Below, one piece after another: positions 9,120 to 58,139 of a DNA stretch of 64,000 bases. A program made the translations under genes and the position numbers. The notes beneath the pieces are model-generated. The model made no database searches. It worked only from the letters and a program-made list of their open reading frames with translations, and was not told the origin of the DNA. Position 1 is the stretch's first letter. Every line of letters begins with the position of its first letter. The DNA is from Mycobacterium sp. Root265 (GTDB lineage Bacteria; Actinomycetota; Actinomycetes; Mycobacteriales; Mycobacteriaceae), in assembly GCF_001428895.1 (NCBI RefSeq), contig NZ_LMJA01000030.1:1-64000 (forward strand), written 5' to 3'.

Positions 9120-9134
9120 GAGAATCTCGTTCTC
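9120..9134. promoter_or_regulatory. GAGAAT-N3-ATTCTC-type operator (GAGAATCTCGTTCTC)
   Basis: This 15-base imperfect palindrome (one mismatch from the best copies at 24527 and 55303) lies in the divergent region between the EBP-like gene and the P450 at 9274. Confidence 0.55.
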
Positions 9135-9218
9135 TCCCGCCATGGGTTGAGCGGGTCGATTAGGCGTTTGCCCTCGTTGACGACGAAGCGGCGCTATGGA
9201 AATGTAATACTCATAGAT

Positions 9219-9233
9219 GAGAGCCACATTCTC
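9219..9233. promoter_or_regulatory. GAGAAT-N3-ATTCTC-type operator (GAGAGCCACATTCTC)
   Basis: The right half is perfect and the left half has two changes; flanking T and A extend the dyad to 17 bases. It sits 41 bases before the P450 start and just downstream of an AT-rich TAATAC (9205-9210), a place where a repressor would block transcription. Confidence 0.55.
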
Positions 9234-9273
9234 ATGGTGACGGGTACTGCCTGCCAGGAACGGAGTAACGCAT

Positions 9274-10551
9274 ATGGCGATCGATCCCGCCGGCATCGAC
9301 TGGTTCAAGGACCCGCGGCTGGTCGCCGATCCCTACCCGTACTTCAACGCATTGCGTGACAAGTGCCCGGTCCAGCCCGAGGACATCTACGGCGTGACCA
9401 TGGTGACCGGTTGGGAAGAGGCGGTATCGGTCTACAACGACGCGGAGACCTTCTCGTCCTGCACCTCGGTGACCGGTCCGTTCCCCGGCTTTCCGGTGCC
9501 GCTGGAGGGCCGCGACGACGTCGCCGAGCTGATCGAAAAGCACCGCGACGAGCTGCCGTTCAGCGATCAGCTGCCGACGCTGGATCCACCGGTGCACACC
9601 AACCATCGGTCTCTGATGATGCGGCTGATCACCCCGAAGCGCCTCAAGGAGAACGAGGACGCGATGTGGCAGCTCGCCGACGGGGTGCTCGACGAGTTCC
9701 TGGCTCCCGGTGAGGGTGAGTTCATCAAGGGCTTCGCCAGCCCGTTCACGCTGCTCGTCATCGCCGACCTGCTGGGCATTCCGCCCGAGGACCGCAACGC
9801 CTTCGTCGACGGCATCTCGCAGAACTCCGGTGGGGGCGTGGGCAGCACCAGCAGTGAATCGCTGTCACACAGCCCGCTGGAGTTCCTCTACGCGCAGTTC
9901 GAGGCCTATATCGAGGATCGGCGGGTCAACCCGCGCGAGGACATCATGACCGGGATGGCCACCGCGCTGTTCCCCGACGGCAGCACGCCGACCCCCGGCG
10001 ACGTCGCCCGCGTCGCCACCAACGTCTTCTCCGCGGGCCAGGAGACCACGGTCCGACTGCTGGGCACCGCACTGAAGGTGCTCGGTGACCGTCCCGACAT
10101 CCAGAAGCAGGTGCGCGAGGATCGCAGTCTGATATCCAACTTCATCGAGGAAGCGCTGCGCCACGAAAGCCCGGTCAAGGGTGACTTCCGGCTGTCGCGC
10201 ACCCCGGTCACCGTGGGGGAGAAGGAACTTCCCTCGGGCACCACCGTCATGGTGGTCAACGCCGGGGCCAATCGCGATCCGCGCCGCTTCGAGGATCCCG
10301 ACGAGTTCGACCCGGCGCGCAAGAATGCCCGCCAGCACCTGGCCTTCGGTCGCGGCATCCACAGCTGCCCGGGTGCACCGCTGGCCCGCGCCGAGACCCG
10401 GGTGGGCCTGGAGCGGCTGCTCGACCGCACCACCGACATCCGCATCTCCGAGGAGAAGCACGGTCCGGCGGGCAATCGCGACTACAACTACATCCCGACG
10501 TTCATCCTGCGCGGTCTGACCCATCTGCACCTGGAGTTCGACGTCAAATGA
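9274..10551 (+). CDS. Cytochrome P450 monooxygenase (2)
   Basis: A P450 of 425 residues. The heme loop FGRGIHSCPG begins at residue 358 with Cys365 as ligand. The I-helix segment is FSAGQETTVR, where Gln replaces the usual acidic/Thr context (AGxET is retained), and the K-helix motif is EEALR. ATG 9274 is preceded by GGAG at about 9260. The stop overlaps the start of a ferredoxin gene by ATGA, so monooxygenase and electron donor are made together. It is clearly paralogous to the P450 at 47741-49018: they share PKRLKENED / PRRLKENED, SPFTLLVIADLLG and the long HGPxGxxxxNY C-terminal region. The substrate is unknown. Confidence 0.95.
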   Translation: MAIDPAGIDWFKDPRLVADPYPYFNALRDKCPVQPEDIYGVTMVTGWEEAVSVYNDAETFSSCTSVTGPFPGFPVPLEGRDDVAELIEKHRDELPFSDQLPTLDPPVHTNHRSLMMRLITPKRLKENEDAMWQLADGVLDEFLAPGEGEFIKGFASPFTLLVIADLLGIPPEDRNAFVDGISQNSGGGVGSTSSESLSHSPLEFLYAQFEAYIEDRRVNPREDIMTGMATALFPDGSTPTPGDVARVATNVFSAGQETTVRLLGTALKVLGDRPDIQKQVREDRSLISNFIEEALRHESPVKGDFRLSRTPVTVGEKELPSGTTVMVVNAGANRDPRRFEDPDEFDPARKNARQHLAFGRGIHSCPGAPLARAETRVGLERLLDRTTDIRISEEKHGPAGNRDYNYIPTFILRGLTHLHLEFDVK

Positions 10552-10736
10552 AGGTCGGCGTCGATGAGGACCGATGCGCCGGCCACGGGATGTGCCTGAC
10601 GCTGTGCCCCGAGGTGTTCGACCTGTCCGATGACGGATGGGCGGTGGCTGCTCCCGGTGAGGTTCCGGCCGAACACGAGGCCGCCGTGCAGGAGGCCATC
10701 CAGTGTTGTCCCGAGAACGCGATTCACGAGATCTGA
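10548..10736 (+). CDS. Single-cluster ferredoxin (P450 redox partner)
   Basis: A 62-residue ferredoxin of the mycobacterial P450-associated type. Cluster ligands are Cys10, Cys16 and Cys54 (CP), with His13 at the position where a fourth cysteine would sit in a 4Fe-4S protein. Extra cysteines occur at 20 and 53. A 3Fe-4S or His-modified cluster is therefore expected. It overlaps the upstream P450 by four bases, which is strong evidence that it delivers electrons to that enzyme. A reductase is not adjacent; the NuoF-like protein at 18899-20182 is one candidate. Confidence 0.92.
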   Translation: MKVGVDEDRCAGHGMCLTLCPEVFDLSDDGWAVAAPGEVPAEHEAAVQEAIQCCPENAIHEI

Positions 10737-10773
10737 ATTTCAATCCGCTTCACCGACAAGGAGATTCCACACT

Positions 10774-22019: not shown

Positions 22020-23165
22020 TTAGAAGACCCGGACCTGGCCCTCAAGTGCCGGCACAGTCTCCGGCACGTTCCGGTAGGTCGACATCCCGTTGCGGAACAT
22101 GATGGGTTCGCGGGCATGCTCGGGCAGGTGCTTGACCAGCCAGCGTGGGTCGTCGAACGTCCAGTGCGGGTAATCGCTGCTGAACAACAGGATTTTTTCG
22201 CACTCCATCCACTCGAAGGCGCGGGTCAACTCGGTCTTGTCCTCCGGGTAGTCCAACGGTTGAGTGGTGAACTTGATGTGGTCCTTGACGTACTCACTGG
22301 GCTTGCGCTTGATGTCCACCCACGACTTCCGGGCCTCGTAGAGCGCGTCCATCCGCCACATCAGCGGCAGGATCCAGGTGAACGCGTGCTCGACGAAGAC
22401 GATCTTGAGCGTCGGATGGCGGTCGAAGGTCCCGTCGAAGATCAGGCTCATCACCTGATTGGCCGCCAGCAGCGAGTAGGTGACCATGAAATCGTGGTTG
22501 TAGCTGGGCAATCCGACCGGCGGCATGGGCAGCTCGTCGTAGTGGCTGCGCGACAGGTGGCAACTGACCGGGATATCGTGTTTGGTGGCCGCGGCCCAGA
22601 TGGCGTCGTACTTGGGGTTGCCCCATGACGGACGCGGCTCGGCCTTGATCAGGATCTGCGACATGAAGGGGTGATCGGCCCAGCGCTCAATCTCCTCGAC
22701 GCTCTTCTCGGGCTCCTCGATGGCCAGGCAGATCGATCCACGCCAGCGCTCGTGCCAGTTGTTCTGCGGGTCCAGCCAGTGATGGGCCTGCCAGTCGTTG
22801 AGCGCCATCGACATGGCGTGCTGCGCCTCGGGGATACGCGCGGGGTAGGCGGCGGGCTCCAGGATGGCGATATCCGCGCCGGCCTCCATGATCAGCTGCT
22901 TGAACGCCAGTTCGGGGTCGCTGCACGGGAATTGACCGTCAGGGGGGAACGAGTCCAGGCGCATGGCATAGGAATGCGCGTAGTCGGGGGCGTCGTAGTA
23001 GATCTGGTCGCCGACCTTGTGGGTGCCGAAGTACTTGCTGCGCCACGGCTCGGGGAGGTACTGGCCGAGTTCGCCCGAGCGCGGGGCCGGATGGACATCG
23101 GAGTCGACGCACCGCACGGCGATGCGCTCGGTGGCAGGTACCCGCGGATTGGCTGTGGTGGTCAT
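22020..23165 (-). CDS. Amidohydrolase_2 (ACMSD-like) metal-dependent hydrolase or decarboxylase
   Basis: A TIM-barrel metal enzyme of 381 residues in the amidohydrolase-2 group, which includes ACMSD and gamma-resorcylate decarboxylases. An early metal motif is DSDVH (residues 21-25), a mid-barrel VSCHLS follows, then FVEHAFTWILPL and the late metal-ligand segment FSSDYPHW. It lies 22 bases downstream of a related amidohydrolase gene and upstream of the Rieske gene, in an operon whose promoter region holds a GAGAAT-type operator. Such enzymes often act on ring-cleavage or side-chain acids; hydrolysis versus decarboxylation cannot be decided. Confidence 0.88.
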   Translation of the reverse strand: MTTTANPRVPATERIAVRCVDSDVHPAPRSGELGQYLPEPWRSKYFGTHKVGDQIYYDAPDYAHSYAMRLDSFPPDGQFPCSDPELAFKQLIMEAGADIAILEPAAYPARIPEAQHAMSMALNDWQAHHWLDPQNNWHERWRGSICLAIEEPEKSVEEIERWADHPFMSQILIKAEPRPSWGNPKYDAIWAAATKHDIPVSCHLSRSHYDELPMPPVGLPSYNHDFMVTYSLLAANQVMSLIFDGTFDRHPTLKIVFVEHAFTWILPLMWRMDALYEARKSWVDIKRKPSEYVKDHIKFTTQPLDYPEDKTELTRAFEWMECEKILLFSSDYPHWTFDDPRWLVKHLPEHAREPIMFRNGMSTYRNVPETVPALEGQVRVF

Positions 23166-23187
23166 GATGTGTGCCTCCTCGTTCCCT

Positions 23188-24312
23188 CTACTGTGCCCCA
23201 GCGGCGGACGCGATGACCGGGCTTTGGATCCCGTACAGTTCGGCCGCGTTGCGCCAGCACAACTTGTCCCGTTGCTCGGCGCTGTAGCTGCTCGGCACCG
23301 AGAGCTCGTTGAGCTGCCAGTGCGGATAGCTGGACCCGTACATCACCATGTCGTCCTTACCGGTGAATCCGGCCCACTCGCCGGCGAAGTCGACGTCACC
23401 GGGTCCGTCCAGCGCGCCCTGCACGAAGAAGACGTGGTTGGGGAGGTAGTCGCTGGGCATTTTGGGTGCCCACGGGGTCTGCTCGAGATGTGGCCGGCCG
23501 AAGCAGTCCATCCGCCACATGAATGGCGTCAGCAGGTCGGCGGCACCGTCGGCCCAGACGAATTTCAGCTCGGGCAACCGCTCGAAGACGCCCTCGGCGA
23601 TCATGTTCATCAGGTGGTAGAGGAAGTTCAGCGCCGTGAACCCGACGTACTGCTCGTAGGTGCGGGTGATTCCGTTGGGCGTGGGCGGCAGTGCGACACC
23701 CGAGCCGACCTCGAAGTGCACGGCGACCGGCAGCCCGGCGTCGACGGCGGCTTCCCACAGTGGCCAGAACTGTGGCTTGCCGTAGAGCTCGCGGGACTGC
23801 AGTGGAATACCGAGTTGCACCACCTGCGGGTGGTCCTTGTATTTGTCGATCTCGCGCAGCGCCCCGGTGATGTCGTCGGGGTTGACCCGGATGGTACCGC
23901 GGAAGCGGTCACCGAATTCGTCGTGCGCCAGCCAGCGGGTCACCATCATCTCGTTGTGCGCCGCGGCGAGCGCGGAGCCGAGGTGACGGTCGGGCATGAT
24001 GCCGCGCGTCATCGGATGCAGGATCGCGATGTCCACACCGCGGTCGGTGAACAGATGCTTGGCCGTGACCGCAGGATCCGATCCGGGGTACTGCCCGTCA
24101 GGGCCCGTGGTGCGGGTGGCGTACTCCCCGCCGGGCGCTCCGTACCAGTCCATCTCGTAGTCGGGGAACCCCCGGCTGGCGAACGGTTCCTTGAGGAAGT
24201 TCTTGCGAAGGTCCTTGTTCGACTCGACGAAGATGTGCACGCTGGTGTCGATCACAGGGACCATCACGCCACCTGAGTCGACACCGCCCGCACCGTCCTG
24301 CAGTTCTTTCAC
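23188..24312 (-). CDS. Amidohydrolase_2 (ACMSD-like) metal-dependent hydrolase
   Basis: A second amidohydrolase-2 protein, 374 residues from GTG 24312 (GAAGGA upstream, about nine bases). It has VIDTSVHIF at the front, AVHFEVGSG in the middle, KFVWADGAADLLTPFMWRMD and the late YGSSYPHW. It is clearly homologous to the next gene but only moderately similar, so this is an old duplication. In the leading motif the first metal pair is DTSVH rather than DxDxH. It is the first gene of a minus-strand operon, and the GAGAAT-type site at 24404-24418 lies 92 bases upstream. Confidence 0.88.
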   Translation of the reverse strand: MKELQDGAGGVDSGGVMVPVIDTSVHIFVESNKDLRKNFLKEPFASRGFPDYEMDWYGAPGGEYATRTTGPDGQYPGSDPAVTAKHLFTDRGVDIAILHPMTRGIMPDRHLGSALAAAHNEMMVTRWLAHDEFGDRFRGTIRVNPDDITGALREIDKYKDHPQVVQLGIPLQSRELYGKPQFWPLWEAAVDAGLPVAVHFEVGSGVALPPTPNGITRTYEQYVGFTALNFLYHLMNMIAEGVFERLPELKFVWADGAADLLTPFMWRMDCFGRPHLEQTPWAPKMPSDYLPNHVFFVQGALDGPGDVDFAGEWAGFTGKDDMVMYGSSYPHWQLNELSVPSSYSAEQRDKLCWRNAAELYGIQSPVIASAAGAQ

Positions 24313-24403
24313 AGTGGTCCATCCTTCAGCTCTGCGGCCGGGCCGTGGGCACAGCCCAGTGCGACGTCTCGAACCCCAGTGTAGATCCTTGTTCTTCAAT
24401 AGC

Positions 24404-24418
24404 AAGAATATTGTTCTC
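24404..24418. promoter_or_regulatory. GAGAAT-N3-ATTCTC-type operator (AAGAATATTGTTCTC)
   Basis: One mismatch in each half. It lies in the 264-base divergent region between the amidohydrolase operon and the FadE operon. An inverted GTTCTT...AAGAAT arrangement with a 7-base gap overlaps it on the left. Confidence 0.55.
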
Positions 24419-24576: not shown

Positions 24577-25596
24577 ATGCTTCTGGAGTTCGACTCTGAT
24601 CAGCGGCTATGGCAGGAAACGGTGCGCGACGCGGTGGGCAAACAGTGCCCGGCGTCGCTCGTCCGGGGAATCGCGGAAAAGGGTGATGATCCGACGCCAC
24701 TGTGGAAGTCGTATCTGGAAGCCGGCTGGACCGAACTGACCGACCCGGAGAACGCGGTCGAACTCGCCATCGTGCTCGAGGAACTGGGCCGGGCCACCGA
24801 CCCGACGCCCTTCCTGGCCACGCTGTCGCAGTTCGCGCCGCTGGCCGGCGCGCGGTACGACGCCGGGAAAGCCGGGGCCGCGATATACGAAGGTGTCAGC
24901 GCCAACTGGAGCCGACAGGGCTGGGAACTGGACGGCACGTCAAAGTTCGTGCTCGATGGCGACCGTGCCGAACAACTCGCAGTGGTGACCCCCGCCGGGG
25001 TATTCGTGATCGATTCGCAGGACGTCCGCACGCGGCGACGCGATGTGTTCGATCCGGTGCTGCACGTCGCCGAGGTGACCTTCGACCGGTTGCGGGTGGA
25101 GGAGTCCGCCCGCCTCGACCTCGACCCGGCTGCCGCGCTGGCTCTGGTCGAGCGGTCTCGGCACATTGCATTGATGGGTATCGCCATCCACACGGTCGGT
25201 GCGTGCCAACGCATTCTGGATCTCGCGCTCGAACATGCCAAGAGCCGCCATCAGTTCGGCGTGCCGATCGGATCGTTTCAGGCCATCCAGCACAAGGCCA
25301 CCGACATGTATGTGGCGATCGAGCGCGCCCGGGCGTTGTCCTATTTCGCCGCGCTCACCATCGCGGCCGATGACCCACGGCGCCGTATCGCCGCCGCCAT
25401 GGCCAAGGCCAGCGCGGGGGAGTGCCAGACACTGGTGTTCCAGCACGGCCTGCAGACCTTCGGAGCCATGGGCTTCACCTGGGAGAACGACCTTCAGTTC
25501 GCGCTGAAGCGGGCCAAGGCCGGCGAGCTGCTGCTCGGCGGTGCCGCTGAACACCGCGCCCTCATCGCCGAGGAGTTTGATGCAACTCGAATTTGA
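24577..25596 (+). CDS. Acyl-CoA dehydrogenase, small or alpha-type chain of a FadE pair
   Basis: An acyl-CoA dehydrogenase-like chain of 339 residues, shorter than the usual 380-400. The recognisable parts are VELAIVLEELGRATDPTP, the C-terminal helices with KSRHQFGVPIGSFQAIQHK, and FQHGLQTFGAMGFTWENDL. The N-terminal flavin-contact TEP/AGSD segment is weak. In mycobacterial steroid beta-oxidation, paired FadE proteins form alpha2beta2 enzymes with one complete active site per pair. The partner gene here overlaps by 17 bases, so this is probably such a heteromer. The promoter region carries the perfect GAGAAT-type operator. Confidence 0.88.
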   Translation: MLLEFDSDQRLWQETVRDAVGKQCPASLVRGIAEKGDDPTPLWKSYLEAGWTELTDPENAVELAIVLEELGRATDPTPFLATLSQFAPLAGARYDAGKAGAAIYEGVSANWSRQGWELDGTSKFVLDGDRAEQLAVVTPAGVFVIDSQDVRTRRRDVFDPVLHVAEVTFDRLRVEESARLDLDPAAALALVERSRHIALMGIAIHTVGACQRILDLALEHAKSRHQFGVPIGSFQAIQHKATDMYVAIERARALSYFAALTIAADDPRRRIAAAMAKASAGECQTLVFQHGLQTFGAMGFTWENDLQFALKRAKAGELLLGGAAEHRALIAEEFDATRI

Positions 25597-28781: not shown

Positions 28782-28830
28782 GGCGGTGTCTCCCTTGATT
28801 ATTGGTGTGGATGGCGCTTGGGTGCGGTCG

Positions 28831-29022: not shown

Positions 29023-29056
29023 TGCGCCAACTCCTTCCGAGTGATTGGATGCGTCA

Positions 29057-37800: not shown

Positions 37801-37812
37801 GGGCAACGGTCG

Positions 37813-41104: not shown

Positions 41105-42561
41105 TGAACCGCAAACGTTCGACGATCCTGGCCGTAGCCGTGGTCGCGGTTCTGGTGGCGGGCGCCGGATTCCTGGCGCGTGAGCTGTATTTCGGGCCCC
41201 GCACCATCTCGGCGCTGTTCACCACCGCCACCGGCGTGTACCCGGGTGACGAGGTCCGGGTGTCCGGTGTTGTCGTGGGCACCATCGAGTCGATCGAGCC
41301 GGAGGGCACCCAGACCAGGCTCACGCTGAAGGTCGACCGCGGCGTCGAGGTCCCCGCAGACGCGAAGGCGGTGCTCGTGGCCCCCAACCTGGTGGCGGCC
41401 CGCTATGTCCAGCTGGCCCCGGCCTACCGGTCGAGCGGTCCGACATTGCCCGACGACGCGGTGATCCCCTTGGAGCGCACCGCAGTTCCCGTCGAATGGG
41501 ACGAGGTGAAGACGCAGCTCACCCGACTGGCGACCGACCTCGGTCCGCAGAGCGGGGTGTCCGACACTTCGGTGGCCAGGTTCATCGACAGTGCCGCCAA
41601 CGCCTTGGAGGGCAACGGGCCGAAGCTGCACGACACCATCAACGAACTGTCCGGTGTGGCCCGGGTGCTCGCCGAGGGCAGCGGTGACATCGTCGACATC
41701 GTCACCAATCTGCAGAAGTTCGTCACCGCGTTGAAGAACAGCGACCAGCAGGTGGTGCAGTTCCAGGACCGGCTGGCGACTTTGACCAGCGTCGTCAACG
41801 GCAGCGGGGACGATATCGATGCCTTGGTCAAGGAACTCTCGGTGGCGATCACCGAGGTGCAGCGTTTCGTGGCGGGCAGCCGCAACCAGACCTCCGAGCA
41901 GGTCCAGCGATTGTCCAACGTCACCCAGAACCTGGTCGACAACAAGATCAACCTGGAGAACGTGCTGCACATCGCGCCGAACGCATTCCTGAACGGCTAC
42001 AACATCTACAACCCGTCCACCGGCAGCGCCGTCGGCCAGTTCGTGTTGAACAACTTCTCCGACCCAGTGTCGTTTGTCTGCTCAGCCATCGGGGCGATCG
42101 AGAACACCACGGCACCGGAGACCGCGAAACTGTGCTCGCAGTACATGGGCCCGGCCCTGCGGTTGCTGAACTTCAACCACCTTCCGTTCCCGATCGCGCC
42201 GTACCTGATGCCCTCGGCCGCACCGGAAGACATCGTCTACTCTGAACCCGGTCTGATGCCCGGCGGGGCCGGCGGATCGCCGGAAGCGCCCGATCTGCCG
42301 CCGACGCTGTCGGCGTACAACGGCGGACCACCGCCACCGCCGCCCTTCACCGGCCGGCCGCCGGGGACCCCGCCGCCGGGAGCACAGCAGATGCTGCCCG
42401 GTGCTCCACCGGTCTCGGTGCTGCCGCCCAATGTGCCGTCGTCATTGCGCGACATGCTCAATCCGGCAGGGACGCTTCCCGGCCCCGCACCCGATGCGCC
42501 CCCGCCACCAGCGGCAGCGGATGCACCGTTGCTGCCAGCGGAAGGAATGCCCCCAGCATGA
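41104..42561 (+). CDS. mceD: MceD-family lipid-transfer protein
   Basis: The fourth Mce protein, 485 residues. The anchor is at about residues 7-26 (ILAVAVVAVLVAGAGFLA). The MCE domain (about 34-110) has FTTATGVYPGDEVRVSGVVVG, and the helical domain has repeated short heptads. From about residue 385 there is a very proline-rich tail (GGPPPPPPFTGRPPGTPPP), a common MceD/MceF feature thought to lie in the cell wall. It overlaps mceC by four bases (ATGA). Confidence 0.94.
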   Translation: MNRKRSTILAVAVVAVLVAGAGFLARELYFGPRTISALFTTATGVYPGDEVRVSGVVVGTIESIEPEGTQTRLTLKVDRGVEVPADAKAVLVAPNLVAARYVQLAPAYRSSGPTLPDDAVIPLERTAVPVEWDEVKTQLTRLATDLGPQSGVSDTSVARFIDSAANALEGNGPKLHDTINELSGVARVLAEGSGDIVDIVTNLQKFVTALKNSDQQVVQFQDRLATLTSVVNGSGDDIDALVKELSVAITEVQRFVAGSRNQTSEQVQRLSNVTQNLVDNKINLENVLHIAPNAFLNGYNIYNPSTGSAVGQFVLNNFSDPVSFVCSAIGAIENTTAPETAKLCSQYMGPALRLLNFNHLPFPIAPYLMPSAAPEDIVYSEPGLMPGGAGGSPEAPDLPPTLSAYNGGPPPPPPFTGRPPGTPPPGAQQMLPGAPPVSVLPPNVPSSLRDMLNPAGTLPGPAPDAPPPPAAADAPLLPAEGMPPA

Positions 42562-43877
42562 GAGGCAGACGATCGATCGTGGCCGTCGGAGTGTGTGTGG
42601 CGATCACCAGCTCCGGGTGTGCCTTCCAGGGTGTGAACTCGCTGCCGCTGCCCGGTGCCGTCGGCAGAGGGTCGGACGCGCACGTCTACCAGGTAGAGAT
42701 CGCCAATGTGGCCACCCTGGAACCGAATTCGCCGGTGATGCTCGACGACGTCGTGGTCGGCAGCGTTCGCAGCCTGTCGGTCAAGGACTGGCACGCCATC
42801 ATCGAGGTATCGGTGAAACCCGACGTGGTCATACCGGCCAACGCTGTGGCCAGCGTGGGCCAGACCAGCCTGCTCGGGTCCATGCACGTGGCACTCAATC
42901 CGCCCATCGGCGAGTCGCCCGAGGGCAAACTGCCCCCGGGGTCGACGGTGGCGCTGGCTGATTCGTCGACCTACCCGTCGACCGAGCAGACGCTGGCCTC
43001 GCTGGCGGCGGTCGTCAACGGTGGCGGGCTGGGCCAGATCGGCGACGTGATCCACAACTTCAGCACCGCCGTCAGCGGGCGCGAGACCGAGATACGGGAC
43101 CTGATCACCCGGTTGGACACCTTCGTCGGTGTGCTGGACGGGCAGCGCGGCAACATCGTTGCCTCCATCGAGTCGCTGAACAGACTGTCCTCCACCTTCG
43201 CCGGCCAGCGGGATGTCATCAGCCGGGCACTGGACAAGATCCCGCCCGCGATGGACGTGCTGATCAAGGAACGTCCCCAATTGGTGACGGCGCTGCAGAA
43301 GCTCGGCACCTTCGGTACGACGGCCAGTCGGCTCGCCAACGAATCGCAGGCCGATCTGGTGCGGAACCTGAAGAATCTGGAACCTGCGATCAAGGCGCTC
43401 GCCGATGTGGGCAAGCAGCTCCCCGATGTCCTGGAGTACGCGGTGCACTTTCCGTTCACCCAGAGCTTCATCGACCGCGCCATCCGTGGCGACTACTACA
43501 ACCTGTTCGCGACCATCGACCTCACCGTGCCGCGACTCAAGCGCAGCCTGTTCCTGGGTACACGCTGGGGTGAGTCCGGGCTTCAACTCGTTCCCGCGCC
43601 GGGGGATCCGCCGTATCTGAACTACACCTACGATCCGCTCAAGACGGGTGTCGAGCCGCCGCCGCCGGAGGTCATCAATCCGGGTGAGCCGCCGGCCGCG
43701 CCACCACCACCTCCTTTGCCGACGGGGCCGGTGCTGCCGTTCACCCCGCCGGTGAGCACGGTGGGTGGGCCGTTGCAGGTCGCCACGCCGATGGCCGGCG
43801 GTGCGGCACCCATCTTTGCGGGACCGTATGGACCGCAAGGTAATCCACCTGTCGCGCCGTCCGCTGGAGGCCGCTGA
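42558..43877 (+). CDS. mceE: MceE-family lipoprotein
   Basis: The fifth Mce protein, 439 residues. It is a lipoprotein: the signal peptide ends in the lipobox SSGC with Cys21 as lipidation site. The MCE domain (about 44-120) carries NVATLEPNSPVMLDDVVVG. A helical domain and a proline-rich C-terminus (PPAAPPPPPLPTGP) follow. MceE is the one lipid-anchored subunit in mycobacterial Mce sets, so its presence in the fifth position confirms a complete canonical operon. It overlaps mceD by ATGA. Confidence 0.94.
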   Translation: MRGRRSIVAVGVCVAITSSGCAFQGVNSLPLPGAVGRGSDAHVYQVEIANVATLEPNSPVMLDDVVVGSVRSLSVKDWHAIIEVSVKPDVVIPANAVASVGQTSLLGSMHVALNPPIGESPEGKLPPGSTVALADSSTYPSTEQTLASLAAVVNGGGLGQIGDVIHNFSTAVSGRETEIRDLITRLDTFVGVLDGQRGNIVASIESLNRLSSTFAGQRDVISRALDKIPPAMDVLIKERPQLVTALQKLGTFGTTASRLANESQADLVRNLKNLEPAIKALADVGKQLPDVLEYAVHFPFTQSFIDRAIRGDYYNLFATIDLTVPRLKRSLFLGTRWGESGLQLVPAPGDPPYLNYTYDPLKTGVEPPPPEVINPGEPPAAPPPPPLPTGPVLPFTPPVSTVGGPLQVATPMAGGAAPIFAGPYGPQGNPPVAPSAGGR

Positions 43878-45628
43878 TGTTGACCCGGTTCGTTCGAATC
43901 CAACTGATTCTGTTCACCATCGCGTCGGTGATCGGCGTCTCGGTGATGGTCTTCTCCTACATGCAGGTACCCACCCTGCTGGGATTGGGGCGCATCACCG
44001 TCAAGGTGGAGCTGCCTGCCACCGGAGGCCTGTACCGCTTCAGCAACGTCACCTACCGCGGCTCGGAGATCGGCAAGGTCACCTCTGTGGAGCTGACAGA
44101 CAGGGGAGCGCAAGCCACGCTGTCGCTGGAGACCTCGCCGGAGATCCCGGCGGACCTCAAAGCCGAGGTCCGCAGCATGTCGGCCGTCGGTGAGCAGTTC
44201 GTCGAGCTGTTGCCCCGCACCGATTCCGGGCCGTTCCTGAAGAACGGTTCGGTGATCACCCAGGACAACACCTCCGTGCCGCAGAAGGTCGGGCCGATGC
44301 TCGATCAGGTCAGCGCGTTGATGGACACCATTCCCCAGGACAAATTGAGTCAGCTGCTCGACTCGACCTACGAAGCGTTCAACGGCACGGGCTACGCATT
44401 CGGCTCGTTGCTGGACTCCGCCGAGACGATCACCAAGGACTTCAACGGCGTTTCCGATCAGTTCCGCTCCCTGGTCGACGACTCCGGACCGTTCCTGGAA
44501 GCACAGGCGCAGACCACCGAGCAGACCCGGACCTGGGCGGCCGGCCTGGCCGGTATCACGGATCAGTTGGCGGACAACGATGTCCACGTCCGGTCGATCC
44601 TGCAGAACGGTCCCGGATTCGCCAGTGAGACCTCGATGCTGCTCAACGATCTCAAGCCGACGCTGCCGGTGCTGCTGGCCAACCTGACCACCATCGGGCA
44701 GATCGGTGTCACCTACAACTCCTCGCTTGAGCAGCTGTTGGTGTTGTTGCCGCCGTACGTCTCCCAGATCCAGACCTACGCGCCGACCAACAATCCCACC
44801 GGTCTGCCCAACGGTGAGTTCTCGCTCGGGCTCGGCGATCCGCCGTCCTGCACCGTCGGGTTCCTGCCGCCCTCGGCCTGGCGTTCTCCGTCCGACACCA
44901 CCACCATCGACACCCCGGACAACATCTACTGCAAGCTGCCCCAGGACTCGCCGATCGCGGTGCGTGGTGCACGGAACTATCCCTGCCAGGGTCATCCCGG
45001 CAAGCGGGCACCCACCGTCGAATTGTGCAACGATCCGCGCGGTTTCGTGCCGCTGGCGCAGCGCCAGCATGCGCTGGGGCCGTACCCGATCGATCCCAAC
45101 CTCATAGCGCAGGGCGTTCCTCCGGACACCCGCGTGCTGCCGGACGAGAACATCTACGGTCCGCTGCAGGGCACTCCGCTACCGCCGGGGGTGAACGTGC
45201 CACCGCCCGGTCCGCCGCCGGCGCCGGAGCCGCCCGCCAGTTTCCCGGGAATGGCGCCCGGGCCGATGCTGCCGGGCCGACCGCTCTACACCGAGCCGCC
45301 GGTGGTCGGTCAATTGCCGCCTCCGGAACCGGATTACAGCGCCGTACCGCTGGCCCCCGGTGACCTGCCGCAGGCCACCCAGGTTCCGCAATTCCCGGAC
45401 ACCTACGTCAAGGTGCCCGAGGGCGGAGCACAGCCGCCGCCACCTGATGTTCCCGCGCCGGCCGCTGCGCCGAGTGCCTTCGAAGGTGCAGGCGCACAGG
45501 CTCCCTCGATGGCGGTCGCCAAGTACAACCCGCGCACCGGCGAGTACATGGGCGCCGATGGCCACCTGTACCGACAGACCGATCTGGTGAACACCGCGTC
45601 GTCGTGGCAGGACCTGATGCCGACATGA
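43877..45628 (+). CDS. mceF: MceF-family lipid-transfer protein
   Basis: The sixth Mce protein, 583 residues and the longest. It has an N-terminal anchor (about 7-28, IQLILFTIASVIGVSVMVF), MCE domain (about 37-115, PATGGLYRFSNVTYRGSEIGKV), and helical domain to about 300. A cysteine-containing region follows (DPPSCTVGF, NIYCKLP, NYPCQG, VELCND), with a long Pro/Ala tail (PPPGPPPAPEPP). It ends in YNPRTGEYMGADGHLYRQTDL, the usual MceF C-terminal motif. It shares one base with mceE (TGATG). Confidence 0.94.
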   Translation: MLTRFVRIQLILFTIASVIGVSVMVFSYMQVPTLLGLGRITVKVELPATGGLYRFSNVTYRGSEIGKVTSVELTDRGAQATLSLETSPEIPADLKAEVRSMSAVGEQFVELLPRTDSGPFLKNGSVITQDNTSVPQKVGPMLDQVSALMDTIPQDKLSQLLDSTYEAFNGTGYAFGSLLDSAETITKDFNGVSDQFRSLVDDSGPFLEAQAQTTEQTRTWAAGLAGITDQLADNDVHVRSILQNGPGFASETSMLLNDLKPTLPVLLANLTTIGQIGVTYNSSLEQLLVLLPPYVSQIQTYAPTNNPTGLPNGEFSLGLGDPPSCTVGFLPPSAWRSPSDTTTIDTPDNIYCKLPQDSPIAVRGARNYPCQGHPGKRAPTVELCNDPRGFVPLAQRQHALGPYPIDPNLIAQGVPPDTRVLPDENIYGPLQGTPLPPGVNVPPPGPPPAPEPPASFPGMAPGPMLPGRPLYTEPPVVGQLPPPEPDYSAVPLAPGDLPQATQVPQFPDTYVKVPEGGAQPPPPDVPAPAAAPSAFEGAGAQAPSMAVAKYNPRTGEYMGADGHLYRQTDLVNTASSWQDLMPT

Positions 45629-47105: not shown

Positions 47106-47124
47106 ATTCTCCGAAACAGAGAAT
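47106..47124. promoter_or_regulatory. ATTCTC-N7-GAGAAT element
   Basis: Two GAGAAT half-sites point outward with a 7-base gap, 29 bases before the exported-protein start at 47153. The same arrangement and gap occur at 53656-53674, so it is probably a variant of the window-wide GAGAAT operator. Confidence 0.45.
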
Positions 47125-47152
47125 GCCACTATCGCAGTAGAGGAGCGGTTCA

Positions 47153-49018: not shown

Positions 49019-49116
49019 GTAGGTCGATCTCCCGGGCTGTGGGTGGGGGTGGTGTTTCGGCGTTGTCTTGCGGCAGATGAAAAATCCGGCGGAAGCAATG
49101 CCGTTGAAAGTGCTGT

Positions 49117-49135
49117 GCACCTGCTTAGCATGTGG
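49117..49135. promoter_or_regulatory. Palindromic operator GCACCTGC-TTA-GCATGTGG
   Basis: Same 19-base element as 3594-3612 with two changes in the right arm. It lies exactly midway (99 bases each side) between the divergent P450 (5) and TetR starts. Confidence 0.65.
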
Positions 49136-53628: not shown

Positions 53629-53646
53629 CAAACGTTCTCCAATTGC

Positions 53647-53683
53647 GGTATTGGCATTCTCGGCTGGTGAGAATAGCATCACC
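53647..53683. promoter_or_regulatory. Double GAGAAT-type element, ATTCTC-N7-GAGAAT
   Basis: ATTCTC (53656-53661) and GAGAAT (53669-53674) are each the intact half of a degenerate 15-base site (53647-53661 and 53669-53683), with centres 22 bases apart. The element covers the promoter space of the divergent enoyl-CoA hydratase and acyl-CoA synthetase genes. Confidence 0.5.
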
Positions 53684-53714
53684 AACATCTGCCCGGCGTT
53701 GCGGAGGTGCTGTC

Positions 53715-55304
53715 ATTTCGATCCGAAATATCCCTGCTGAGCTGAGTAAACGGTACGTGGAGCAGGGGTGGTGGACACCGGAAACGCTCGGCCAGCTGTT
53801 GGCCGACGGACTGCAGGCCAGTCCCGACGCCAGTTTTGTCGTGCACTCCGCCACCCGGCCCTTCAGCGGAACCTTCGCCGACGTCGAGCGCAGCGCCCGA
53901 CGGCTGGCGGCCGGCCTGCGCGACCGCGGTGTGGGAGCGGGCGACGTGGTCGCCCTGCAGCTGCCGAACTGGATGGAGGCCGCCGTCGCGTTCTGGGCCT
54001 CGGCGTTCCTCGGTGCCGTGACGGTCCCGATCGTGCATTTCTACGGCCGCAAGGAGCTCGGGCACATCATCGCGACCGCACGGCCGAAGGTCTTCCTCAG
54101 CACCTCCGAGTTCGGCCGGATGACCTTCCACGCCGACCTGTGCGCGGAGGTGCCGATCGTCGGGCTGGTCGGCGCAGACGGTGAGCTGGCCTTCGACCGG
54201 CTGCTGGCCGCCGAACCGATGACCGGGACCGTCGACGCCGATCCGGCCGCTCCGGCGCTCATCGCGTTCACCTCGGGCACCACCCGTGAACCCAAGGGCG
54301 TCATCCACAGCCATCAGACGCTGAACTGCGAGACGCGCCAGCTGCTGGACAACTACCCGCCCAACCGCGGGCGCCAGCTCACTGCCACTCCGGTCGGTCA
54401 CTTCATCGGCATGCTCGGCGCCTTCCTGATCCCGGTGCTGGAAGGTGCGCCCATCGATCTGTGCGATGTGTGGGACCCGGGCCGGGTGCTGGAGATCATC
54501 GAGCACGACGGACTGTCGATCGGCGGCGGACCGCCCTATTTCGTCACCAGCCTGATGGACCATCCGGGTTTCACCGACGCCCACTTGGCCCGGTTCTCCA
54601 CCGTGGGCCTGGGCGGGTCGACGGTCCCCTCGGCGGTCACCCGGCGCCTCGCCGACCTCGGACTTTTCGTCTTCCGCTCGTACGGCAGCACCGAACATCC
54701 CTCGATCACCGGTTCGGGCGCCGGCGCGCCGGAAGACAAACGGCTGTTCACCGACGGCAATGTCCGTCCCGGTGTGGAGATCCGGCTCGGGCCCGACGGC
54801 GAGATCTTCAGCCGGGGCCCCGACCTGTGCCTGGGCTACACCGATGAGGCGCTGACCGCGAAATCCTTCGATGACGACGGCTGGTACCGCACCGGGGATA
54901 TCGGCGTCCTCGACGCGGACGGATACCTCACCATCACCGACCGCACGGCCGACCTGATCATCCGGGGCGGCGAGAACATCAGCGCCCTGGAGGTCGAGGA
55001 AGTGCTGTTGAGCATGCCCGCCGTCCTCGAGGCCGTCGTGGTGGCCGCCCCGGATGCGCGGCTGGGGGAGCACGTCGCGGCCGTGCTGCGGATCCGGCCC
55101 GGTGCGGTGATGCCGACGCAAGAGCAGGTGCGCGCGCACTTCGAGCAGGCCGGCGTGGCCCGGCAGAAATGGCCCGAGGAACTGCTCGCGGTGCCCGATG
55201 GCCAGGACTTTCCGCGGACCGCGAGCGGCAAGGTGCAGAAGTTCCGGGTCCGCCAGGAAATCGCCGACGCCGCCCCCCGGGGCATTGCGGCATCCACATC
55301 ATGA
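53715..55304 (+). CDS. Acyl-CoA synthetase (cyclohexanecarboxylate-CoA-ligase-like)
   Basis: An AMP-forming ligase of about 529 residues. The P-loop-like ATP motif is FTSGTTREPKG, followed by RSYGSTEHPS, the YRTGDIGVLD motif, and IIRGGENISALEVEE. The C-terminal catalytic Lys is in TASGKVQKF. Start: the best Shine-Dalgarno sequence GGAGGT (53703-53708) is six bases before an ATT codon at 53715, and the protein then starts MISIRNIPAEL. An in-frame GTG at 53667 and TTG at 53643 are alternatives, but both fall inside the operator. It activates an acid to its CoA thioester via an acyl-AMP. Confidence 0.9.
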   Translation: MSIRNIPAELSKRYVEQGWWTPETLGQLLADGLQASPDASFVVHSATRPFSGTFADVERSARRLAAGLRDRGVGAGDVVALQLPNWMEAAVAFWASAFLGAVTVPIVHFYGRKELGHIIATARPKVFLSTSEFGRMTFHADLCAEVPIVGLVGADGELAFDRLLAAEPMTGTVDADPAAPALIAFTSGTTREPKGVIHSHQTLNCETRQLLDNYPPNRGRQLTATPVGHFIGMLGAFLIPVLEGAPIDLCDVWDPGRVLEIIEHDGLSIGGGPPYFVTSLMDHPGFTDAHLARFSTVGLGGSTVPSAVTRRLADLGLFVFRSYGSTEHPSITGSGAGAPEDKRLFTDGNVRPGVEIRLGPDGEIFSRGPDLCLGYTDEALTAKSFDDDGWYRTGDIGVLDADGYLTITDRTADLIIRGGENISALEVEEVLLSMPAVLEAVVVAAPDARLGEHVAAVLRIRPGAVMPTQEQVRAHFEQAGVARQKWPEELLAVPDGQDFPRTASGKVQKFRVRQEIADAAPRGIAASTS

Positions 55305-55318
55305 GAATATGATTCTCA
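55302..55318. promoter_or_regulatory. GAGAAT-N3-ATTCTC operator, perfect copy
   Basis: TGAGAATATGATTCTCA is a 7-3-7 dyad, the best in the window. Its first three bases are the stop codon of the acyl-CoA synthetase, and it lies 22 bases before the amidohydrolase ATG, giving that gene its own regulated promoter. Confidence 0.75.
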
Positions 55319-55339
55319 CGAACCGAAAAGGAGCATCTC

Positions 55340-56530
55340 ATGGGTCAACTGTCGCATCGGGTCGACATACCGTTTCCGCTGTTCGATGCGGACAACCACC
55401 TCTACGAGCCTCCGGAGGCGATGACCAAGTACCTCCCCAAGGAGTACAAGGACGTCGTCCAGTACGTGGAGATCAACGGCCGCACCAAGATTGCGCTCAA
55501 GGGCCAGATCAGCAACTACATCCCGAACCCCACCTTCTCCGTCGTCGCCAAGCCTGGCGCCTGGGAGGAGTACTTCAAGTTCGGTAACCCGGACGGCAAG
55601 AGCAAGCGCGAACTGTTCGGCGAGCCGATGAAGGCCATCCCGGCGTTCTTCGAGCCCGAGCCGCGCATCAAGGTGATGGACGAGCTCGGCCTGGACCGCT
55701 CGCTGATGTTCCCGACGCTGGCCAGCCTCATCGAAGAACGTCTGGCCGATGATCCGGTCGCCATCCACGTCATCGTCCATGCGCTCAACGAGTGGCTGCA
55801 CGAGGTGTGGGGCTTCAACTACCAGGGCCGCATCTTCACCACGCCGGTGATCACCCTGCCCATCCTGGACAAGGCGATCGAGGAACTGGAGTGGGCCGTC
55901 AAGCGCGGCGCACGGGCCATCCTGATCCGTCCGGCACCGGTCCCCGGTTTCCGCGGTCCGCGCTCGTTCGCGCTGCCGGAGTTCGATCCCTTCTGGGAGC
56001 GCTGCGTGCACCACGACATCTTCGTCGGCATGCACTCCTCGGACAGCGGCTACTCGCGCTACACCTCCGAATGGGATGGCGGCGCGCAGGAGATGCTGCC
56101 GTTCCAGACCAACGCGATGTCCATCCTCAACGAATGGCGTCCGATTCAGGATGCGGTGGCCTCCTGGGTCATCCACGGCGCGCTGTTCCGGCACCCGAAG
56201 CTGAAGGTCGGCATCGTCGAGGCCGGCTCCAAGTGGATGTTCCCGCTGCTCGATTCGATGGCCGAGGTGTACAAGAAGGCACCCGAGGCGTTCCTCGGAA
56301 ACCCGATGGAAGAGATCAAGAACCGGATCTACGTCAGCCCGTTCTACGAAGAGGGCATCGATGACCTGATCAACCTGATCGGTGTCGACCAGGTGCTGTA
56401 CGGCTCGGACTGGCCGCACCCGGAGGGCCTGGCGGAGCCGACGCACTACGTGACGGCTCTGGAGCACCTCTCCATCGAGGACCAGGCAAAGATCATGGGC
56501 GGCAACCTCGGACGCCTCATCACCACGTAG
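55340..56530 (+). CDS. Amidohydrolase_2 (ACMSD-like) metal-dependent hydrolase
   Basis: A TIM-barrel enzyme of 396 residues with the metal motif FDADNHLYE (DxDxH-like), a mid-barrel VGMHSSDSG, KVGIVEAGSKWMFPLLDS, and the late YGSDWPHPEG with the ligand Asp. ATG 55340 follows AAAAGGAG by seven bases. It is homologous to the tandem pair at 22020-24312 but more typical of the family. It sits between two acyl-CoA synthetase genes behind a perfect GAGAAT-type operator, so it belongs to the same catabolic set. Confidence 0.9.
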   Translation: MGQLSHRVDIPFPLFDADNHLYEPPEAMTKYLPKEYKDVVQYVEINGRTKIALKGQISNYIPNPTFSVVAKPGAWEEYFKFGNPDGKSKRELFGEPMKAIPAFFEPEPRIKVMDELGLDRSLMFPTLASLIEERLADDPVAIHVIVHALNEWLHEVWGFNYQGRIFTTPVITLPILDKAIEELEWAVKRGARAILIRPAPVPGFRGPRSFALPEFDPFWERCVHHDIFVGMHSSDSGYSRYTSEWDGGAQEMLPFQTNAMSILNEWRPIQDAVASWVIHGALFRHPKLKVGIVEAGSKWMFPLLDSMAEVYKKAPEAFLGNPMEEIKNRIYVSPFYEEGIDDLINLIGVDQVLYGSDWPHPEGLAEPTHYVTALEHLSIEDQAKIMGGNLGRLITT

Positions 56531-56539
56531 CTCTCGCGA

Positions 56540-58030
56540 GTGACTTACACGCAGAAGTGGCAGACCATCCCTGAGATGGTCTTGAGCGTCGGCGACCGCT
56601 TCGGTGATTCCGAAGCGGTCGTCGACGGATCGTTGCGACTCAGCTATGTCGAACTGGCGCAGCGGGTTCGGCGCGCTGCCGGTGCCTTCGCCGAGTTCGG
56701 CGTCACCAAGGGCGACCGGGTCGCGATCTGGGCGCCCAACTCCGCGGCCTGGCTGATCGCCGCGTTCGGCGCCGTCACCGCCGGCGCAGTGGTGGTCCCG
56801 GTGAACACCCGGTTCAAGGCCGAAGAGGCCGCCGACATCATCACCCGTAGCGGCGCCAAGGCGGTCCTGGTCCAAAACGGCTTCCTGGGACAGGATTTCA
56901 GCGTCCCCGAGGGCGTCCCGGCGATCGAGATCACCTCGGACTTCCTGGAGAGCGGGCAGCCCTACGAGGCGCAGGGCCTGCTGGGCACCGATATCGCCGA
57001 CATCATCTACACCTCCGGCACCACCGGCCGGGCCAAGGGCGTGATGATGAATCACGAACAGACGCTGCGGCTCTACACCGAGTGGTGCGATCTGGCCGAC
57101 CTGCGCGAGGGCGACCGCTACCTGATCGTCAACCCGTTCTTCCACACCTTCGGCTACAAGGCCGGCTGCATCTCCTCGCTGATCCGCGGCGCCACCATCC
57201 TGCCGGTTCCGGTGTTCGACGTTCCGGCCGTCGTGGACCTCATCGAGACCGAACGGATCACCATGCTGCCGGGCGCGCCGACGCTGTATCACTCACTGCT
57301 GGCGGTGCCCGACAAGCATCGGCTGGCGACCCTGCGCGCCGGGGTCACCGGAGCCGCCGACATCCCGGTGGAGCTCATCCGCCGGGTGCACGAGGAACTG
57401 CCGTTCCAGACCCTGGCGACCGGCTACGGGTTGACCGAGGCCGGCACGGTCACCCTGTCGCGTCCCGGCGACTCGTTCGAGGACATCGCGACCACGGCGG
57501 GCAAGCCCTGCGACGGTGTCGAGGTGCGTATCGCCGAGGACGAAGAGGTGCTGGTGCGCGGATACACCGTGATGCAGGGCTACCTGGATGATCCGGTGGC
57601 CACCGCGGAGACCATCGACGCCGACGGGTGGCTGCACACCGGGGATCTGGGCGCCTTCGATGAGGCCGGACGGCTCAAGATCGTCGGCCGCAAGAAGGAC
57701 ATGTTCATCGTGGGCGGCTTCAACGCCTATCCGGCCGAGATCGAGGGCTTCCTGCTCGAGCACCCGGCAGTGCGCCAGGTCGCGGTCATCGGCGTGCCCG
57801 ACGAGCGGATGGGCCAGGTGGGCAAGGCCTTCGTGGTGTTGGGCACCGGAGCGAGCGAAGCGACGGGGGCAGGCGACGGTGACGGCTTCGCCGAGACCGA
57901 TCTGATCGCCTGGAGCCGGGACCGGATGGCCGGGTATAAGGTGCCGCGGTACGTAGAGTTTCTGGATGAGCTGCCCTTGAATGCCACGGGCAAGGTGATG
58001 AAGGATCGCCTTCAGGATCTCGCCCGCTGA
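56540..58030 (+). CDS. Acyl-CoA synthetase (FadD3-like)
   Basis: An AMP-forming acyl-CoA ligase of 496 residues with YTSGTTGRAKGVMM, ATGYGLTEAG, LHTGDLGAFDEAGRLKIVGRKKD, and C-terminal Lys in NATGKVMKD. Layout and motifs resemble FadD3, the ligase for the steroid-ring propionate HIP, but the family also includes other ring-acid and fatty-acid ligases. GTG 56540 is nine bases after the amidohydrolase stop. A loop near residue 437 contains GASEATGAGDGDG, encoded by a GCGAGCGAAGCGA string like the intergenic spacers at 16921 and 34811, probably an inserted linker. Confidence 0.9.
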   Translation: MTYTQKWQTIPEMVLSVGDRFGDSEAVVDGSLRLSYVELAQRVRRAAGAFAEFGVTKGDRVAIWAPNSAAWLIAAFGAVTAGAVVVPVNTRFKAEEAADIITRSGAKAVLVQNGFLGQDFSVPEGVPAIEITSDFLESGQPYEAQGLLGTDIADIIYTSGTTGRAKGVMMNHEQTLRLYTEWCDLADLREGDRYLIVNPFFHTFGYKAGCISSLIRGATILPVPVFDVPAVVDLIETERITMLPGAPTLYHSLLAVPDKHRLATLRAGVTGAADIPVELIRRVHEELPFQTLATGYGLTEAGTVTLSRPGDSFEDIATTAGKPCDGVEVRIAEDEEVLVRGYTVMQGYLDDPVATAETIDADGWLHTGDLGAFDEAGRLKIVGRKKDMFIVGGFNAYPAEIEGFLLEHPAVRQVAVIGVPDERMGQVGKAFVVLGTGASEATGAGDGDGFAETDLIAWSRDRMAGYKVPRYVEFLDELPLNATGKVMKDRLQDLAR

Positions 58031-58044
58031 GCGGACGCACAGCA

Positions 58045-58061
58045 CGGAAATATCGTTTCCG
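58045..58061. terminator. Weak hairpin after the second acyl-CoA synthetase
   Basis: A 6-base stem CGGAAA/TTTCCG with a five-base loop, 15 bases after the stop. It is too short to be a convincing terminator and is listed as the only candidate in this gap. Confidence 0.3.
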
Positions 58062-58124
58062 CAGGAAAAGCGTTGTTTCTGGGCGAATCGGCGATGCGGT
58101 ATCGTCGAGTGAATAGTCGAATTT

Positions 58125-58139
58125 GATAACGCCATTCTC
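58125..58139. promoter_or_regulatory. GAGAAT-N3-ATTCTC-type operator (GATAACGCCATTCTC)
   Basis: The right half is perfect and the left half has two changes. It lies 20 bases upstream of the Mce-associated gene at 58160, linking it to the same candidate regulon. Confidence 0.45.

What the first reader, a model, noticed from the sequence alone, without database searches (positions are those of the whole stretch)
9120..58139. A shared palindromic operator, GAGAAT-N3-ATTCTC, marks a regulon covering the whole catabolic island
Seen directly: perfect copies at 24527-24541 and 55303-55317, and near copies at 9120, 9219, 24404, 30704, 30856 and 58125, plus outward-facing pairs at 47106 and 53656. All lie in gaps just before gene starts: EBP-like/P450, amidohydrolase-Rieske and FadE pair, SDR-ferredoxin-P450, ALDH-thiolase-mce, enoyl-CoA hydratase/acyl-CoA synthetase, the third amidohydrolase, and the mam genes. 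It does not match the KstR or KstR2 motifs known for cholesterol genes. Inference: one TetR-like repressor, not yet described for this set, switches import, oxidation and beta-oxidation together. The regulator may or may not be one of the three TetR genes in the window.
Basis: partly seen in the sequence, partly recalled or inferred. Interest (0 to 1): 0.85.

Follow-up and report, generated by a model that had tools for sequence, protein, structure and literature searches.

The report
TetR operator and regulon, island-wide
A repeated 15-letter DNA switch site found across a large lipid- or terpenoid-degrading gene island in a mycobacterium is real, shared with related genera, and most likely read by one TetR-type regulator that lies just outside the window and that I could not find described.

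Summary
GAGAAT-N3-ATTCTC occurs exactly 8 times in the 6.67-Mb genome (2 in the window), all 8 between genes. A weight matrix trained only on relatives finds 10 window sites of at least 14 bits, against 0.235 on average (maximum 2) in 200 random windows. The outward-facing pairs are real too: ATTCTC-N7-GAGAAT is a second operator form, two degenerate palindromes 22 bp apart, that recurs in relatives.

The regulator is very probably none of the three window TetRs but a TetR gene on contig C11 (12954-13607), adjoining the window in relative G099. Of 151 family genomes, all 29 with at least 2 exact sites carry its orthologue; 0 of the 118 without it have 2. An exact operator precedes the gene in 79 of 80 named-record loci. 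Two window TetRs have other palindromes in front.

Predicted targets include an operon with an MCE gene, P450s, a Rieske oxygenase, amidohydrolases (one DitZ-like), beta-oxidation genes and a 2-oxoacid:ferredoxin oxidoreductase. Binding, repression, ligand and substrate (perhaps diterpenoid-like) are inferred. My paper searches found no report of this motif-regulator pair.

The parts
9120..9134 (.). operator GAGAATCTCGTTCTC, between genes 8248- and 9274+ (P450 with best PDB match CYP150A6)
   Evidence: 1 mismatch, 22.1 bits; the orthologous gap has a site in 4 of 4 fetched mycobacterial relatives
9198..9212 (.). weak operator, 21 bp (centre to centre) from 9219: tandem pair
   Evidence: 15.4 bits; 21/22-bp spacing enriched
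9219..9233 (.). operator GAGAGCCACATTCTC before P450 9274
   Evidence: 21.0 bits
24404..24418 (.). operator AAGAATATTGTTCTC at the amidohydrolase 23188- side (overlaps the called start by 2 bp)
   Evidence: 19.9 bits; counterpart in 4 of 4 relatives, 14.1-24.5 bits
24527..24541 (.). perfect operator GAGAATGCTATTCTC, 35 bp before FadE-pair gene 24577+
   Evidence: exact, 27.9 bits; counterpart in 4 of 4 relatives
30703..30717 (.). operator GAGAACCGTACTCTC before SDR 29948- (SDR/P450 genes)
   Evidence: 18.1 bits; counterpart in 4 of 4 relatives
30856..30870 (.). operator GAGAATGAAATTTCC, about 20 bp before the probable ATG of the aldehyde dehydrogenase and the run of genes, one of them MCE, that follows
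   Evidence: 20.3 bits; sequence context; counterpart in 4 of 4 relatives
47106..47133 (.). everted operator ATTCTC-N7-GAGAAT (47106-47124) with palindrome 47119-47133, before gene 47153+
   Evidence: 17.0 bits for 47119; same N7 form in G099 before the orthologue; not clearly kept in G052, G147, G085
53647..53683 (.). everted operator ATTCTC-N7-GAGAAT (53656-53674), two degenerate palindromes 22 bp apart, between crotonase 52912- and acyl-CoA ligase 53643+
   Evidence: 9.7 and 10.6 bits; N7 form beside the 53643 orthologue in G052, G147, G109, G045, G095, beside the 52912 orthologue in G085, and at the matching place by gene order in G099
55303..55317 (.). perfect operator GAGAATATGATTCTC, 22 bp before amidohydrolase 55340+
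   Evidence: exact, 28.4 bits; counterpart in 4 of 4 relatives
58125..58139 (.). operator GATAACGCCATTCTC just before gene 58142+
   Evidence: 22.4 bits; counterpart in 3 of 4 relatives (G099, G052, G147)
9274..10551 (+). predicted target: cytochrome P450, best PDB match CYP150A6
22020..24405 (-). predicted targets: two Amidohydro_2 proteins (23188- and 22020-)
24577..26755 (+). predicted targets: acyl-CoA dehydrogenase pair
27411..30649 (-). predicted targets: SDR 29948, SDR 29057, P450 27411 (26826-, at the end of the group, has no Pfam hit)
30817..45628 (+). predicted targets: aldehyde dehydrogenase, class III CoA-transferase, OB/ChsH2_C protein, thiolase, then same-strand genes to 45628; of these only 37813 was tested and matches the NCBIfam MCE family
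53643..58030 (+). predicted targets: acyl-CoA ligase 53643, amidohydrolase 55340, acyl-CoA ligase 56540
166..183 (.). different palindrome CTGAGACCCTTGTCACAG before the window TetR 212-874 (rival regulator)
49112..49129 (.). different palindrome GCTGTGCACCTGCTTAGC before the window TetR 49231-49902 (rival regulator)

Best explanation
GAGAAT-N3-ATTCTC is the operator of one TetR-family regulator, encoded at G000:C11:12954-13607 (protein P0001 from residue V23), in a part of the same island that is assembled on another contig. A dimer binds one 15-bp palindrome. Two dimers side by side (centres 21-22 bp, two helix turns) bind tandem sites, which at some promoters have decayed to the everted form ATTCTC-N7-GAGAAT with only the inner half-sites intact. 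The sites lie mostly within 160 bp of a start codon, so the bound protein most likely blocks transcription (inferred). A catabolic intermediate, probably an acyl-CoA by analogy with KstR2 (inferred), releases it and switches on import, P450 and Rieske oxidation, CoA activation and beta-oxidation together, and the regulator's own gene. Shown here: the site, its spacing rules, conservation, predicted target list and co-occurrence. Inferred: binding, dimer arrangement, repression, ligand, substrate.
For: Own genome: 8 exact copies, all intergenic; three copies with at most 2 mismatches flank the TetR gene, one of them exact and upstream. Across 151 family genomes all 29 with at least 2 exact sites have the orthologue and 0 of 118 without it do; 161 sites in 33 genomes against 9 in 118; the backward control pattern is 0 in every row. 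The contrast holds within genera, e.g. g22: 5 sites with, 0 or 1 without. Operator at its own gene: within 200 bp upstream in 30 of 30 orthologue loci read (27 exact), 25 of 30 also downstream; exact upstream in 79 of 80 named-record loci, downstream with at most 2 mismatches in 68 of 80 (the 80 are the best of at least 416 relatives). The HTH stretch is nearly invariant in the 17 orthologues aligned. Spacing: GAGAAT-Nn-ATTCTC 66 times at n=3 and twice at any other n from 0 to 15; a second match of at least 5 bits at 21 and 22 bp in 19 and 23 of 308 flanks, base rate 0.0016. Two window rivals have other palindromes in front.
Against: No binding or expression data. Co-occurrence alone barely separates P0001 (phi 0.922) from window TetR 212-874 (phi 0.913). 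G098 has the orthologue but no exact site (one 2-mismatch site upstream and one 1-mismatch site downstream of the gene). G076 and G092 have the orthologue but no site with at most 1 mismatch on its contig. One named locus, L119, has no upstream operator (best 3 mismatches). The genomes are related, so Fisher values overstate independence. In relatives 30 of 162 hits fall in called genes, perhaps in part because one codon model called genes of other genera. The rivals' own palindromes were found in only part of their orthologues (4 of 9 and 7 of 12 upstreams).
Confidence: 0.9

Rival explanations
1. The operator is read by window TetR 212-874, which also belongs to the island.
For: Its orthologues co-occur with sites nearly as well: 26 of 27 genomes with it have at least 2 sites. 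In G109 a 27.5-bit site lies before its gene.
Against: Missing from G031, G121 and G082, which have 6, 4 and 2 exact sites and keep P0001. Another palindrome, CTGAGACCCTTGTCACAG, stands in front: with small changes also in G099, G052 and G109, so 4 of 9 upstreams read; a GAGAAT site of at least 14 bits is missing in 8 of those 9.
Confidence: 0.04
2. The operator is read by window TetR 49231-49902 or 7349-8005.
For: 49231 co-occurs moderately (22 of 25 with at least 2 sites); in two g11 genomes GAGAAT-type sites of 18.6 and 19.4 bits lie before its gene.
Against: 49231 has no hit of 55% or more in 7 genomes with at least 2 sites, and 7 of 12 orthologue upstreams carry another palindrome GCTGAGCACYTGCTTAGC (own genome: one letter off); 7349 is found in only 3 other genomes.
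Confidence: 0.01
3. This is the 'motif X' and Rv0767c-type TetR already proposed for phytosterol-induced genes (PMC6593523).
For: Same kind of claim: palindrome, TetR with an adjacent site, P450s and dehydrogenases in the putative regulon.
Against: In this genome the TetR with the Rv0767c gene order (divergent aldehyde dehydrogenase, P450 behind) is another protein at C13 (L275:3156-3767), best blastp E 0.10 to P0001; a palindrome TTGGACATGTGTCCAG lies at its called start and no GAGAAT site is in that locus (best 6.1 bits). A paper on ChIP-derived sites reports GAC and GTC trimers enriched at Rv0767c sites (passages).
Confidence: 0.05
4. Chance palindromes in AT-richer intergenic DNA.
For: Two-mismatch matches are common genome-wide (94).
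Against: Markov controls, near-exclusive N3 spacing, orthologous-gap conservation and co-occurrence.
Confidence: 0.005

Closest known systems
KstR regulon of mycobacteria (Kendall 2007, PMC1995591; passages read)
   Same: TetR regulator of a large lipid-catabolic set including its own gene; short palindrome with AGAAC-like half-sites; many sites between divergent genes, two copies in one gap.
   Different: KstR palindrome TAGAAC-N2-GTTCTA (14 bp) against GAGAAT-N3-ATTCTC (15 bp); no exact KstR core in the window; here a tandem/everted 21-22-bp architecture; different enzyme set.
KstR2 regulon (PMC3068626; passages read)
   Same: TetR with a palindromic site in its own promoter; sites 22-82 bp before five starts (285 bp before a sixth).
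   Different: AnCAAGnnCTTGnT; no exact match in the window (three 1-mismatch matches); 15-gene regulon.
Motif X / Rv0767c-type TetR G155_05115 (PMC6593523; one section and passages read)
   Same: Palindrome beyond KstR and KstR2 over P450 and dehydrogenase operons, with a site at the TetR gene.
   Different: By gene order its counterpart here is a different TetR with a TGGACA-type palindrome; the logo itself was not seen.
Mce3R (PMC11667970; title and start of abstract in search listings only)
   Same: TetR-type control of genes linked to an mce system.
   Different: Double TetR motif and non-palindromic site according to title and abstract.
dit clusters for abietane diterpenoids (Pseudomonas, Paraburkholderia; PMC10710418, passages read)
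   Same: C11 amidohydrolase is closest in the PDB to DitZ (8uyr, E 5e-112); P450s, Rieske oxygenase, CoA ligases, thiolases.
   Different: MCE gene and B12 mutase present; no typical extradiol dioxygenase among the genes scanned (not all C11 genes were); actinobacterial; Rieske subunit only distantly like solved ones (best E 8e-25).

Membership tests
TetR-family transcriptional regulator with its own regulon | TetR_N HTH domain in the regulator | tested here: met
   PF00440 E 4e-7, 30.1 bits against a cut-off of 24
TetR-family transcriptional regulator with its own regulon | Operator at its own promoter, conserved | tested here: met
   30 of 30 loci read, 79 of 80 named-record loci; not found for G076 and G092
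TetR-family transcriptional regulator with its own regulon | Direct binding and derepression in a deletion mutant | not testable with these tools
   needs EMSA and RNA-seq
KstR regulon | TnnAACnnGTTnnA in promoters | tested here: not met
   0 exact cores in the window; three 2-mismatch matches to TAGAACNNGTTCTA, none at the GAGAAT sites
KstR2 regulon | AnCAAGnnCTTGnT in promoters | tested here: not met
   no exact match; three 1-mismatch matches at 7914, 28396 and 29733, none at the GAGAAT sites
Rv0767c / motif X regulon | Regulator is the TetR beside cyp123 and aldA | tested here: not met
   that TetR is at C13 (L275), not P0001; assigned by gene order only
Rv0767c / motif X regulon | Operator letters equal to the motif X logo | tested here: inconclusive
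   logo is a figure and was not seen; GAC/GTC trimer enrichment reported for Rv0767c sites
dit diterpenoid cluster | DitZ-type hydrolase | tested here: met
   8uyr E 5e-112 for one C11 amidohydrolase; similarity, not activity
dit diterpenoid cluster | DitA1-type ring-hydroxylating dioxygenase | tested here: inconclusive
   Rieske oxygenase present but only distant PDB relatives; DitA1 sequence not on hand
dit diterpenoid cluster | Growth on resin acids lost on mutation | not testable with these tools
   bench test

The most novel reading that the evidence does not exclude
A third master regulator of polycyclic-isoprenoid catabolism in mycobacteria and their relatives, beside KstR and KstR2: it commands a 115-135-kb island with its own Mce importer that degrades diterpenoid-like (resin-acid-type) or other non-cholesterol terpenoids, using a two-mode operator (15-bp palindrome, or everted ATTCTC-N7-GAGAAT read by two adjacent dimers).
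Probability: 0.35. Interest if true: 0.8.

Novelty: new member of a known kind. Interest (0 to 1): 0.62.

Why it matters
It ties an operon with an MCE gene and many catabolic genes of unknown substrate to one regulator and one readable operator, so the substrate question becomes testable: delete one gene, see what is switched on, and use the operator as a biosensor to screen for the inducer. It indicates that this island is controlled apart from the cholesterol regulons. The marker (regulator plus site) also predicts which species hold the system; orthologues were found in eight genera of the family sample.

Tried and rejected
Window TetR genes as regulators: rejected by distribution and by other palindromes in front of two of them. 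TetR at C11:26607-27275 and IclR at C11:37395: hits of about 70% or more are confined to the genus, others at 59% or less (TetR) and 47% or less (IclR), so they are unlikely to explain sites in other genera (TetR). KstR and KstR2: motif absent. Motif X / Rv0767c: a different TetR by gene order. One search was wrong because genome-search loci are in contig orientation; redone. The tool's backward control (6 against 94 at up to 2 mismatches; 0 for exact copies) holds stop codons, so I added Markov windows and spacing scans. P0001 was not found on plasmids at E up to 1e-40. Structure prediction was not obtained, so there is no fold comparison; the sequence search of the PDB gave only weak hits for P0001 (best 1.4e-8). 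Paper searches for the motif, its regulator, resin-acid and mce links; none of the listings or passages I saw reports this motif-regulator pair, but figures, most subscription papers and supplements were not searchable, so this does not prove absence from print.
Full report
What is there. The window is bases 1-64000 of contig C27 in a 30-contig, 6.67-Mb genome. The closest relatives of the regulator among named records are in Mycolicibacterium (sp. P9-22 97%, M. frederiksbergense 95%, which may leave out the own genome). Pfam scans show P450s, amidohydrolases, an acyl-CoA dehydrogenase pair, SDRs, an aldehyde dehydrogenase, CoA-transferase, thiolases and acyl-CoA ligases; gene 37813 matches the NCBIfam MCE family, the other genes of that run were not scanned.

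The motif. Genome-wide there are 8 exact copies: C27:24527, 55303, 226696; C11:7344, 12817, 44498, 47442; C25:340064. All 8 are intergenic by my gene calls. Of the 12 copies with at most 1 mismatch 10 are intergenic and 2 inside genes. A matrix trained on 116 intergenic sites of relatives only gives 10 window sites of at least 14 bits; 200 Markov windows give 0.235 on average, maximum 2. In 204 kb of G000 stretches 22 of 22 hits of at least 14 bits count as outside genes if 60 bp are allowed for uncertain starts; four of them lie within those 60 bp. In relatives 132 of 162 hits are outside and 30 inside called genes.

Conservation. In four fetched relatives of the same genus (G099, G052, G147, G085) a site of at least 14 bits stands in the orthologous gap for 9120/9219, 24404/24527, 30703/30856 and 55303 in 4 of 4, for 58125 in 3 of 4, and for 47119 clearly in 1 of 4. 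Sites also precede orthologues in other genera (G109, G045, G135, G095, G119, G031).

Spacing. In all fetched stretches GAGAAT-Nn-ATTCTC occurs 66 times with n=3, once with n=4, once with n=8 and with no other n from 0 to 15. ATTCTC-Nn-GAGAAT occurs 12 times with n=7, 3 times with n=6, once with n=9, and with no other n from 2 to 15. Around 154 sites (308 flanks) a second match of at least 5 bits is found 19 times at 21 bp and 23 times at 22 bp, base rate 0.0016. The 'outward-facing pairs' at 47106 and 53656 are therefore best read as tandem double operators whose inner half-sites are kept. The 53656 form recurs beside the orthologue of 53643 in G052, G147, G109, G045 and G095, beside that of 52912 in G085, and at the matching place by gene order in G099.

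The regulator. C11 carries a TetR gene (called 12888-13607) with an exact operator upstream and two more sites (1 and 2 mismatches) downstream. The real start is probably the GTG at 12954: L077, L078, L083 and L086 have a stop codon in the upstream extension, V23 is invariant in 17 aligned orthologues, and a GTG near this place is found in 75 of 80 named loci, an ATG in 4. In 151 family genomes orthologues (E below 1e-80) are in 33, of eight genera; 29 of these have at least 2 exact sites, 3 have one, 1 has none. Of the 118 without, none has 2 or more, 9 have one (G044, a 30% hit, was counted as without). The operator is upstream of the gene in 30 of 30 loci read. Of the other three genomes G141 has it about 78 bp upstream; G076 and G092 show none with at most 1 mismatch on that contig. 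In 80 named-record loci it is exact in 79. Genes of the window's start and of C11's start are neighbours in G099, so the two contigs most likely form one island.

The rivals. TetR 212-874 co-occurs almost as well but is absent from three genomes with 2 to 6 sites and has another palindrome in front, seen in 4 of 9 upstreams; TetR 49231 likewise (7 of 12; second copy at window 3589-3606); TetR 7349 is rare. Both 212-874 and 49231 have GAGAAT-type sites before them in some other genera, so they may be under this regulator there.

Targets and possible substrate. Among the C11 genes scanned are a Rieske oxygenase, four acyl-CoA dehydrogenases, SDRs, FAD enzymes, a ligase, CoA-transferases and a split B12-dependent mutase. 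Best PDB matches: DitZ for the C11 amidohydrolase (5e-112), 2-hydroxyisobutyryl-CoA mutase for the mutase (3e-152), CYP150A6 for P450 9274 (1.6e-151), Tcur3483 for FadE 25541 (1e-57). Targets elsewhere are a 2-oxoacid:ferredoxin oxidoreductase (C27:226696) and a FadE pair with crotonase (C25:340064), whose orthologues in G099 lie inside the island. This points to breakdown of polycyclic terpenoids or similar compounds; diterpenoid is a guess from DitZ.

Prior work. KstR and KstR2 have other palindromes (passages). The nearest claim is motif X with an Rv0767c-type TetR. In this genome the TetR with that gene order is a different protein with a TGGACA-type palindrome, though the motif X logo itself could not be read. 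A search for the written-out motif in papers found none. I conclude: a real regulon of a known kind, with its likely regulator now named and a distinctive double-operator rule; binding and sign of regulation remain to be tested.

Noticed in passing
window 49112-49129 and 3589-3606: A second palindrome, GCTGAGCACYTGCTTAGC-like, before TetR 49231 / P450 47741 and before gene 3609 / P450 2346: perhaps the own small regulon of TetR 49231.
   Followed up: partly
window 166-183: Palindrome CTGAGACCCTTGTCACAG before TetR 212-874, kept with one changed letter in G099 and G052 and with two in G109.
   Followed up: partly
L029 (G000:C1:26961-30545): A paralogue of the C11 TetR (33% identity) beside a 411-aa protein that looks like an amidohydrolase by eye, with a 16.1-bit half-conserved site GTGAGAATGACGTTACC in its divergent gap.
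   Followed up: partly
L275 (G000:C13), 3024-3163: Aldehyde dehydrogenase divergent from TetR plus P450 (Rv0767c-like order) with palindrome TTGGACATGTGTCCAG at the called TetR start.
   Followed up: partly
G147 C1, island stretch: Sites near the FadE pair and the aldehyde dehydrogenase occur twice with the same letters about 26 kb apart, suggesting a duplication.
   Followed up: no
window 1 / C11 1: The contig break between C27 and C11 falls in a gap of roughly 140 bp between called orthologues in G099; cause unknown.
   Followed up: no
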